Below are positions 4,274-61,614 of a stretch of DNA of 64,000 nucleotides, piece by piece. The notes under the pieces are model-generated. The model was not told the origin of the DNA. It worked only from the letters and a program-made list of their open reading frames with translations, and ran no database searches. The stretch is from Botryosphaeria dothidea (Eukaryota > Ascomycota > Dothideomycetes > Botryosphaeriales > Botryosphaeriaceae). The stretch covers positions 2,542,001 through 2,606,000 of the forward strand of contig WWBZ02000001.1 of NCBI GenBank assembly GCA_011503125.2. The letters are read 5' to 3'. Both the position numbers and the translations under genes were made by a program. Every line of letters starts with the position of its first letter. Within the stretch, counting starts at the first letter, position 1.

Positions 4274-5131
4274 TTTGCAGGCAGTAGAGCTCCAAATGAA
4301 AGAGGGCATGCAACTTCAAGTTTTCAAGAGTTCGAAATGTATAGCACGAGGACGACCGTGCAGTCAATTTATCTATTAAGGCCGAGATCAGGCATCCAGC
4401 TACAGAGTCAGCGCTTGGCCAATGTGTCCGCAAGGCCTTCCCGTAAATAGGAGAATCAAGGGAGATCTACCCGACATCTTCGTACTCGGTCGTACTTGAT
4501 GCGAGCTTTGGCTGACCCGTGGCTCTTTAATGGTGTGTTCGTATGAGCGATATAGGCCTTGTCCCTTTTTGCTTGCTCGGGGTTGGATATAGGCGCGCTA
4601 ACTGCTTGGCAAAGTATCCAAGATAGATAGCCTGGAAGCCTTAGTTGAGGGGACTTATTTCCGCGGTCAATGTCTCCGCCAAGAGCTAGCCCGACGACCG
4701 CTGCACTCTGTGCGACCCGGGCACAAGGCCAAGCTACCTTCGCAATGAGCAATTCACCTAATTCATTGCTATCAGAACTACTTTTATAGGGTTGGGGCCT
4801 CAAACAAAAAGGGGAAACTCAAAGGACACAAATTTTGCAACGAGGCATTATGTGTAAATCGCGCGTAATCCGCTAGTGATGACTCCATCTCGTCGTTGTT
4901 CACAAAGGATCCAGTCCATTATCAGGAGAATCAGATCAACCTATTATCATCTTGAAGTCTTTTTCTAGCCTTTTTACATAGGTCATATATGTGTGAGCAG
5001 AAGGGTGATGGAAACGTCGTGTACTGCTATCCCGTTACATGGTTCGGTTCTTGAAGAGAGAAAAAAATGAGCCATGTAATGAGCCATGTAAAAGAAATTC
5101 TATTACTTTCTAACTACTACTCTTAGTTAGG
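4274..5131. other. Intergenic, short tandem repeat only
   Basis: No gene seen. Two adjoining copies of ATGAGCCATGTA lie at 5068-5090. The minus-strand open frame 4456-4803 has no family match or start context. Confidence 0.4.
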
Positions 5132-5140
5132 AAAAAAAAA
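5132..5140 (-). terminator. Pol III terminator of tRNA-Asp (T9)
   Basis: On the minus strand a run of nine T residues begins five bases after the discriminator base of the tRNA. This is the normal RNA polymerase III stop signal and it supports the tRNA gene being transcribed. Confidence 0.8.
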
Positions 5141-5161
5141 TTAATCTCTCCGACGGGGAAT

Positions 5162-5214
5162 CTGTTTGATATTAGTGACGTTGTAAACTGTGAGATTCGA
5201 ACGTGTAATCTTAC
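5162..5214 (-). other. 53-nt spliceosomal-type intron in the tRNA T-loop
   Basis: It starts GTAAG, has ACTAAT about ten bases before the end, and ends in AAACAG. Its length and signals match the protein-gene introns in this window (for example 139-191, also 53 bp). It splits the T-loop and therefore the B-box promoter of the tRNA, yet contains its own B-box-like GTTCGAATC at 5202-5194. I see no obvious bulge-helix-bulge across the borders. Confidence 0.65.
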
Positions 5215-5233
5215 CGAACCCCGGTCTCCCGCG

Positions 5234-5276
5234 CTTGTAACGATACTCTTGTTGTGGCAATTTGCCAAGGTGGCAG
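5234..5276 (-). other. Canonical tRNA intron (position 37/38)
   Basis: 43 nt lie between A37 (5277) and C38 (5233), the universal site cut by the eukaryotic tRNA-splicing endonuclease. It contains a small hairpin TGGCA-AAT-TGCCA near its 5' end. Confidence 0.8.
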
Positions 5277-5313
5277 TGACAAGCGGAAATCATGACCACT
5301 AGACCATCGAAGA

Positions 5314-61266: not shown

Positions 61267-61614
61267 TCACACATCACGCATCGCCTCTTCTCTCTTGAAT
61301 ATAAAAGCAGCCATCTTGTCGTCCATCAGTGAATTTTCTTCTCCATTTCTCTTTGCTGGAAGGCTTAGATCAAGTGTAGTATCTGTTCTTTTCAGTTTGA
61401 CCGCTGAAACGTCGATTATCGGTCGACTTCCTTTCACCAAGGCAAACATATTTTTGGAACCTTGCGGGATGCAGGGTAAATCGACCACTGGGCGGTGCTC
61501 ATTGTCGTACCTGGTACTTGCACTGTGTCGCCGGTATTGCACTGCCTCCGGCTGACGCGACATTTTCTTTTTTCTTCTTTCTCGGCCGTGCTCGGCCGGT
61601 GAGGGGAAGATCAT
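61267..61614 (-). CDS. Possible small basic protein, unknown
   Basis: The first ATG in the open frame is at 61614 (MIFPSPAEHGRERRKKKMSRQPEAVQ...), giving 115 residues. The sequence is basic at the start (GRERRKKKM), then HRPVVDLPCIPQGSKNMFALVKGSRPIIDVSAVKLKRTDTTLDLSLPAKRNGEENSLMDDKMAAFIFKREEA, which looks more protein-like than chance frames. The open frame continues upstream without an ATG to about 61818, where TATAAATA (61793-61800, plus sense) lies. I recognise no family. Confidence 0.35.
   Translation of the reverse strand: MIFPSPAEHGRERRKKKMSRQPEAVQYRRHSASTRYDNEHRPVVDLPCIPQGSKNMFALVKGSRPIIDVSAVKLKRTDTTLDLSLPAKRNGEENSLMDDKMAAFIFKREEAMRDV

What the first reader, a model, noticed from the sequence alone, without database searches (positions are those of the whole stretch)
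5146..5313. tRNA-Asp gene interrupted in its T-loop by a spliceosomal-looking intron, plus a normal anticodon-loop intron
Seen: minus-strand tRNA-Asp(GUC) closes into a perfect 72-nt cloverleaf only after removing 43 nt at the usual 37/38 site and 53 nt between positions 57 and 58. The 53-nt piece starts GTAAG, has ACTAAT, ends in CAG, and has the same length and signals as mRNA introns in the window. Known: nuclear tRNA introns normally sit at 37/38 and are cut by the tRNA endonuclease. T-loop introns are known from archaea and red algae. Spliceosomal introns in a Pol III RNA are known for yeast U6. Inference: this tRNA may need both splicing machineries. I do not know of a described fungal nuclear case.
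Basis: partly seen in the sequence, partly recalled or inferred. Interest (0 to 1): 0.88.

Follow-up and report, generated by a model that had tools for sequence, protein, structure and literature searches.

The report
Spliceosomal-type introns inside fungal tRNA genes
In a Botryosphaeria-like fungus, several transfer-RNA genes are split in the T-loop by what look like ordinary mRNA-type introns that also carry a promoter box, so these tRNAs probably need the messenger-RNA splicing machine to become functional.

Summary
Window 5313-5146 (-) is a tRNA-Asp(GUC) that gives a 72-nt tRNA only after removing 43 nt at 37/38 and 53 nt at 57/58 (GTAAG...ACTAAT...CAG). It is not a lone insertion: of seven tRNA-Asp places matched, four carry a 53-nt insert at this site and three do not. 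The inserts have diverged but keep 5' splice site, branch site, AG and a B-box-like CGTTCGAA; the 16-nt 3' exon is nearly unchanged. Three further loci (two distinct sequences) of a tRNA-Ala(CGC) type have a 57-58-nt insert at the same position, again with GTTCGA at intron position 13; they differ by a compensatory pair (A5-U68/G5-C68) across the intron. One of three U6 loci has a 58-nt GT-AG intron with a B box. Best reading: spliceosomal introns in Pol III genes that break the exonic B box and bring a replacement, so these tRNAs need both the tRNA endonuclease and the spliceosome. One copy (L006) indicates that the insert moved between tRNA-Asp genes as DNA. No RNA evidence and no related genome were available.

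The parts
5277..5313 (-). tRNA-Asp(GUC) exon 1, positions 1-37 (holds the A box)
5234..5276 (-). 43-nt intron at the canonical 37/38 site
   Evidence: ARAGORN i(38,43) once the T-loop insert is removed
5215..5233 (-). tRNA-Asp exon 2, position 38 to G57 (CGCGGGAGACCGGGGTTCG)
5162..5214 (-). 53-nt T-loop insert at 57/58, spliceosomal-type intron
5210..5214 (-). 5' splice site GTAAG
   Evidence: invariant in 4 of 4 tRNA-Asp T-loop inserts
5193..5203 (-). intronic B-box-like element CGTTCGAATCT
   Evidence: PWM 9.6 against 0.3 for the interrupted exonic box; GTTCGA at intron position 13 in all 6 distinct T-loop inserts read
5171..5175 (-). branch-site-like CTAAT, A 10 nt before the 3' end of the insert
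5162..5164 (-). 3' splice site CAG
5146..5161 (-). tRNA-Asp exon 3, A58 to G73
   Evidence: 15 of 16 columns invariant in the four interrupted copies
5132..5140 (-). run of nine T, Pol III terminator-like
5031..5131 (-). downstream tail ending in an inverted repeat (hairpin 5091-5031, end GTAACGGG); a 20-base pattern for its 3' end matches exactly only here and behind two other interrupted tRNA-Asp genes

Best explanation
The gene is a functional tRNA-Asp(GUC) gene with two introns of different kinds. Pol III starts at the A box in exon 1 and uses a B box that lies inside the T-loop intron, because the intron splits the exonic B box (GGTTCG|ATTCC). The 43-nt 37/38 intron is removed by the tRNA splicing endonuclease and ligase. 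The 53-nt 57/58 intron is removed by the major spliceosome (GTAAG / ACTAAY / YAG). T-loop removal probably comes first, since the T-arm must close before 3' end processing. The same arrangement occurs in tRNA-Ala(CGC)-type genes and a like one in a U6 gene, so it is a small class of Pol III genes with spliceosomal, promoter-carrying introns. Shown: the sequence anatomy, its recurrence and the selection pattern. Inferred: transcription, splicing, B-box use and order of steps.
For: (1) Four tRNA-Asp loci on four contigs share site and length; splice columns 11/13 invariant and B-box columns 9/11, against 8/29 for other intron columns. (2) The 16-nt 3' exon lies between diverged intron and diverged flank yet keeps 15/16 columns in four copies (binomial about 5e-8 at the 8/29 rate); conversion of so short a tract is unlikely. 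(3) L006 carries its own control: the displaced old 3' end behind the insert has a 5-bp insertion and one or two substitutions, while the intron-linked 3' exon is intact. (4) Ala-CGC-type genes L108 and L112: exons differ at 3 of 72 positions, two of them a compensatory acceptor pair A5-U68 to G5-C68 with partners on opposite sides of the T-loop intron; the introns are identical at only 37 of 58 columns. (5) GTTCGA starts at intron position 13 in all 6 distinct T-loop inserts read, from two tRNA families; of 197 GTRAG sites in the window only this one has GTTCGA in the next 20 nt. (6) Of three U6 loci, L100 has a 58-nt GTAAG...CTAAC...CAG intron with a B box, and its flanking sequence from TTGAAACG to the T run matches the intronless L098. 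(7) U2 in the window holds GTAGTA. (8) No canonical bulge-helix-bulge: central helix 2 of 4 pairs in all four Asp copies.
Against: No RNA data. Three of seven tRNA-Asp loci lack the insert, so the interrupted ones need not work. L003 has an uncompensated G65 to A change in the T-stem. The B box of L003 scores only 4.5 (0.13-0.25% of window positions score as high) and of L006 6.3; the Ala-type boxes were not scored. TTCGAA can also pair with exonic TTCG, so the element could serve RNA pairing instead. Both Ala-type introns end in AAG rather than YAG, and L112's branch is TTAAC. Signal and B-box columns were chosen after seeing the alignment.
Confidence: 0.82

Rival explanations
1. Insertion pseudogenes: the T-loop inserts are junk that disabled spare tRNA copies, and the intron signals are inherited from one source.
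For: Three tRNA-Asp copies without the insert exist. A review says T-arm insertions in eukaryotic tRNA genes are mostly seen in one of many synonymous genes and taken as pseudogenes (PMC4090602, section 5 read). L003 has one unpaired change.
Against: Insert cores diverged while the 3' exons, splice signals and B box largely did not. Compensatory pair across the intron in the Ala-type genes, for which no uninterrupted relative was matched (3 of 3 matches have the insert). The true relic in L006 does decay.
Confidence: 0.1
2. A non-canonical tRNA intron cut by the tRNA endonuclease, as in Cyanidioschyzon and archaea.
For: T-arm introns exist in those lineages and in nucleomorphs (PMC4090602, PMC9602550, PMC3978253).
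Against: No canonical bulge-helix-bulge in any of four Asp copies (2 of 4 pairs; the Ala-type genes were not tested); the conserved positions are those of spliceosomal signals; a like intron sits in U6, which is not a tRNA.
Confidence: 0.05
3. The inserts are the left part of a small mobile element that targets tRNA T-loops and replaces the tRNA 3' end behind a spliceable spacer; intron-like behaviour is a by-product of element survival. (This concerns origin and can be true together with the best explanation.)
For: L006: a 245-nt insert (intron, 3' exon, terminator, tail) flanked by a 14-bp direct repeat GGAGACCGGGGTTC and followed by the displaced old 3' end; the sequence on both sides resembles the uninterrupted paralog L007 (about 27 nt of 5' flank and the gene up to the T-loop at 96%; 3' side 73% over 90 columns). 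L001, L003 and L006 tails end at the same point and that end is found nowhere else (3 exact hits).
Against: No tail in L002; no direct repeat or relic at L001 or L002, and only a doubtful one at L003 (9 of 200 shuffles reach it). No copy of the tail end outside tRNA-Asp loci. Copying from a donor gene during repair of a staggered break explains L006 as well.
Confidence: 0.25

Closest known systems
Spliceosomal introns in fungal U6 snRNA genes, in S. pombe with the B box inside the intron (recalled: Tani and Ohshima 1989; Frendewey et al. 1990; Canzler et al. 2016; the latter two looked up and not held)
   Same: Pol III gene, short GT-AG intron, B box inside the intron; this genome has such a U6 (L100)
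   Different: Here the host RNA is a tRNA, the intron splits the exonic B box itself, and the same gene also has an endonuclease-type 37/38 intron
Ectopic T-arm tRNA introns of Cyanidioschyzon merolae (for example tRNA-Ile(UAU), 53/54) and of Guillardia theta nucleomorphs (passages and one section seen)
   Same: Nuclear or nucleomorph tRNA genes with introns both at 37/38 and in the T-arm
   Different: C. merolae introns are described as bulge-helix-bulge dependent and its transcription as probably TFIIIC-independent; G. theta inserts are 3-24 nt with unknown removal. Here canonical spliceosomal signals and a replacement B box
Spliceosomal introns in rRNA genes of lichen fungi (passages of PMC8527467)
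   Same: Ectopic spliceosomal introns (one of 57 bp) in a stable non-coding RNA that is not a Pol II product; yeast spliceosomes removed it
   Different: rRNA and Pol I; no promoter element in the intron mentioned in the passages seen

Membership tests
U2-type spliceosomal intron | 5' splice site matching fungal GTRNG and able to pair with U1 | tested here: met
   GTAAG in 7 of 7 distinct Pol III inserts read (6 T-loop, 1 U6); the U1 gene was not looked up
U2-type spliceosomal intron | branch site CTRAY 8-20 nt before the 3' end | tested here: met
   CTAAY in 6 of 7, A 10-13 nt from the end; L112 has TTAAC
U2-type spliceosomal intron | YAG 3' splice site | tested here: inconclusive
   YAG in 4 Asp and U6; AAG in both Ala-type introns
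U2-type spliceosomal intron | excision as a lariat by the spliceosome | not testable with these tools
   no RNA data
Endonuclease-type tRNA intron (T-loop insert) | 37/38 location or bulge-helix-bulge | tested here: not met
   57/58 location; central helix 2 of 4 pairs in 4 of 4 Asp copies
Endonuclease-type tRNA intron (the 43-nt intron) | 37/38 location | tested here: met
   ARAGORN i(38,43)
Pol III intron with internal B box (S. pombe U6 type) | B-box match inside the intron | tested here: met
   GTTCGA in 7 of 7; Asp PWM scores 9.6, 7.8, 4.5, 6.3 against 0.3 for the split exonic box
Pol III intron with internal B box (S. pombe U6 type) | B box needed for transcription | not testable with these tools
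   needs a transcription assay
tRNA insertion pseudogene | relaxed constraint on the exons | tested here: not met
   exon 3 15/16 columns invariant against 8/29 in the intron; compensatory A5-U68 to G5-C68; against: G65 to A in L003
Mobile element | target-site duplication and copies at independent sites | tested here: inconclusive
   14-bp repeat at 1 of 4 Asp loci; tail end not found outside tRNA-Asp loci

The most novel reading that the evidence does not exclude
This fungus has a class of spliceosome-dependent tRNAs: a B-box-carrying spliceosomal intron has settled at position 57/58 in at least two, probably three, tRNA families, acts as a portable internal promoter, and has moved between genes as DNA. 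At least one isoacceptor, the Ala(CGC) type, may be made only through the spliceosome, which would tie tRNA supply to mRNA splicing capacity.
Probability: 0.4. Interest if true: 0.95.

Novelty: new variant of a known kind. Interest (0 to 1): 0.87.

Why it matters
Textbook division of labour gives tRNA introns to a protein endonuclease and mRNA introns to the spliceosome. A tRNA that carries one of each breaks that division and gives a natural system for asking how an uncapped Pol III transcript reaches the spliceosome, how the two machineries are ordered, and how a spliceosomal intron is tolerated inside a promoter (it brings its own B box). tRNA finders may not see such genes: ARAGORN missed four of four Asp and two of two Ala-type sequences tested until the insert was removed, so they may be widespread and unannotated. 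L006 offers a look at intron spread between tRNA genes.

Tried and rejected
Chance match: rejected. Bulge-helix-bulge intron: rejected as canonical motif for the Asp genes. Exon-intron helix GGGGTTCG/CGAAYYTC: predicted for L001-L003 (0 pairs with both sides changed); by eye it does not hold in L112, so it ranks below the B box. The repeat next to L003 is a solo-LTR-like sequence with 40 scored matches (L003 itself included; 40 of 62 candidates scored), near the tRNA and not part of it. Tail as a dispersed repeat: rejected, 3 exact sites; the fourth hit, 3 mismatches, is at control level (controls 4 and 7); the L006 tail as DNA query matched only itself, so that search was too strict to see even L001 and L003. 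Relic 3' ends (200 shuffles each): L006 downstream 0 of 200; L003 downstream 9; L001 upstream 5 (not expected there, taken as chance among 14 tests); L003 upstream 0, which is the neighbouring tRNA; L001 and L002 downstream nothing. A U6 origin of the T-loop intron: alignments little better than chance (70-230 of 1000 shuffles reach them). C3/C12 duplicate as source of an empty allele: the stretches tested do not align. Viral contigs: 8 matches to a 15-base pattern, none in a tRNA by eye. Conventional tRNA-Ala(CGC): 0 matches, but the positive-control pattern found only 1 place with 0 and 6 in its own controls, so this says nothing. Literature: 10 searches (listings with titles and starts of abstracts) plus passages of five papers and one section showed me no spliceosomal intron in a tRNA gene; the listed papers were not read through, and the library holds open-licence PMC papers only. 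The first B-box matrix was hampered by a slicing error and replaced; that one still includes at least one mis-cut box (GATTCGGGTTC), and a sixteenth, too short, was left out.

Full report
Setting. The window is position 2542001-2606000 of contig C1 of a 51.7-Mb genome in 78 contigs. A PEX11 protein encoded in it is 87% identical to one of Botryosphaeria dothidea and 60-69% to named proteins of Neofusicoccum, Macrophomina, Diplodia and Lasiodiplodia, so the source is a Botryosphaeria or near relative (Dothideomycetes). U2 snRNA lies in the window at 61343-61566.

The observation. On the minus strand, 5313 to 5146, lies a tRNA-Asp(GUC) whose 72 mature positions are split into 37, 19 and 16 nt by a 43-nt insert at 37/38 and a 53-nt insert between G57 and A58. 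The 53-nt insert reads GTAAG...CACTAAT...CAG with the branch A 10 nt from its end. Nine T follow five bases after the gene. ARAGORN sees no tRNA in the window; with the T-loop insert removed it calls tRNA-Asp with an anticodon-loop intron.

Copies in the genome. Searching with the 168-nt gene gives seven places. L001 (window), L002, L003 and L006 have a 53-nt insert at the same site; L004, L005 and L007 have none. A composite pattern for the T-loop insert hits exactly the four, controls 0. The seven mature sequences are the same except one D-loop change shared by L006 and L007 and G65 to A in L003.

Selection. In the gapless four-way alignment, 11 of 13 splice-signal columns and 9 of 11 B-box-like columns are invariant, against 8 of 29 others. 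These column classes were set after looking. The 16-nt 3' exon keeps 15 columns although it is bordered by a diverged intron and a diverged flank. If the inserts were dead weight, exon 3 should have drifted with them. L006 gives an internal control: behind its insert lies the old 3' end of the same gene, displaced, and that piece has a 5-bp insertion and one or two substitutions in about 36 nt, while the exon behind the intron is intact.

A second tRNA family. A genome search for GTRAG followed by a B box and CTAAY gave five places (reversed controls 1 and 1): L001, L002, one U6 gene, and a duplicated locus L108/L109. L108 is a tRNA with a 16-nt anticodon-loop intron and a 58-nt T-loop insert at the same 57/58 site; without the insert ARAGORN calls tRNA-Ala(cgc), and the drawing shows G3:U70 and A73. 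A search with it gives three places, the identical pair and L112, all with the insert. L112 and L108 differ at 3 of 72 exon positions; two are a compensatory change of one acceptor pair, A5-U68 to G5-C68, with the partners in exon 1 and exon 3, i.e. on either side of the T-loop intron. Their inserts agree at 37 of 58 columns. It is the most direct sign that exons on both sides of the insert act in one cloverleaf.

Promoter in the intron. The insert destroys the exonic B box: GGTTCGGTAAG scores 0.3 on a matrix made from 15 distinct boxes of 36 called tRNA genes here (at least one box mis-cut), and the best box within each interrupted Asp gene is the intronic one, at 9.6, 7.8, 4.5 and 6.3. The 4.5 of L003 is weak: 0.13-0.25% of window positions score as high. 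In all six distinct T-loop inserts read, of both families, GTTCGA starts at intron position 13. Of 197 GTRAG sites in the window only this one is followed by GTTCGA within 20 nt. A fixed-spacing pattern found the seven known loci plus a colinear pair of new loci with zero mismatches; that pair could not be read, so a third tRNA family is likely but not shown. With up to two mismatches the pattern gives 118 places against 185 for its controls, so the mismatched hits carry no weight; the controls are not broken down by mismatch.

U6. Three U6 loci score. L098 and L099, 99.5% identical 3.1-kb copies, have no intron and a B-box-like GTTCGACCCCC just behind the terminator. L100 carries a 58-nt GTAAGCCGTTCGATCCC...CTAAC...CAG insert with GTTCGA at position 8, and its flanking sequence from TTGAAACG to the T run equals L098. 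That S. pombe U6 has its B box in a spliceosomal intron is recalled from the literature and was not readable here. So this genome places spliceosomal-type introns with B boxes in two kinds of Pol III gene.

Mechanism. Most likely: A box in exon 1 plus B box in the intron recruit TFIIIC; Pol III transcribes to the T run; the spliceosome removes the 57/58 intron; the T-arm closes; ends are trimmed; the endonuclease removes the 37/38 intron. In C. merolae, T-arm introns are supposed to leave before the anticodon intron (passage in PMC9602550), which fits this order. Each step is inference. The major alternative for removal, the tRNA endonuclease, lacks a canonical bulge-helix-bulge here.

Spread. 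L006 resembles L007 in about 27 nt of 5' flank, the first exon and the short type of 37/38 intron (96% over 104 nt; 21 against 19 nt of intron), and on the 3' side (73% over 90 columns), but has a 245-nt insert (T-loop intron, 3' exon, terminator, tail) followed by a repeat of GGAGACCGGGGTTC and the old 3' end. The tail resembles those of L001 and L003 and all three agree up to GTAACGGG, L001 and L003 for about four bases more; that end occurs nowhere else. So the unit most likely moved between tRNA-Asp genes as DNA, either by repair copying from a donor gene with a staggered break or as a small element. L001 and L002 show no such scar and L003 at most a doubtful one, so I do not file it as a transposon.

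Limits. No RNA data, no related genome and no verified mRNA intron set. The mRNA-intron comparison is a signal scan. Three uninterrupted tRNA-Asp loci mean interrupted ones could be dispensable. L003 has an uncompensated T-stem change; the Ala-type introns end in AAG; L112's branch site is TTAAC. Whether another tRNA-Ala(CGC) without insert exists is unknown. The tRNA census is partial: 63 of 1497 candidates were scored. Two of the three Ala-type loci lie on contigs that share a colinear duplicated stretch and may be one gene.

Novelty. A 2014 review treats T-arm insertions in eukaryotic tRNA genes as mostly pseudogenes, with algae and nucleomorphs as exceptions (PMC4090602, section 5). Ten searches of the held library (listings) and the passages read showed no spliceosomal intron in a tRNA gene. 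Against the closest known kind, U6 introns with an internal B box, this is a new variant: tRNA as host, intron within the B box, two intron classes in one gene.

Noticed in passing
L100 (G000:C18:304005-304103 and downstream), with L098/L099: U6 snRNA gene with a 58-nt spliceosomal-type intron holding a B box, in a genome that also has intronless U6 copies with a B-box-like sequence downstream of the terminator.
   Followed up: yes
L108/L109 (C36:3128781, C78:2243096) and L112 (C29:2960472): tRNA-Ala(CGC)-like genes with a T-loop intron at the same 57/58 site and a 16-nt 37/38 intron; no uninterrupted relative matched.
   Followed up: yes
G000:C36:3806408 and C78:2920750: Two further exact matches to the T-loop exon + 5' splice site + B box pattern (GTTCGGTGAGTCTCTTGGTTCAA), probably a third tRNA family; not read. 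Six one-mismatch places are also unread.
   Followed up: no
L006 (C36:1213690), downstream side: 245-nt insert flanked by a 14-bp repeat, with a displaced decayed tRNA-Asp 3' end behind it.
   Followed up: yes
window 5031-5131; L003 and L006 downstream: Tail with an inverted repeat ending GTAACGGG, shared only by three interrupted tRNA-Asp loci, lying beyond the terminator; no Rfam match above gathering score. Its role is unexplained.
   Followed up: partly
C36/C78 (offset about 885.7 kb) and C3/C12 (offset about 1699.5 kb): Matching loci at constant offset between contigs, identical or nearly so where compared; perhaps uncollapsed haplotypes or segmental duplication, so counts of loci there may be doubled.
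   Followed up: partly
L003, about 110 nt behind the tRNA: Solo-LTR-like sequence (TGATGGAATGC...) with an apparent 5-bp ATATC duplication by eye; 40 scored matches in the genome, the others at 92-98% identity.
   Followed up: partly
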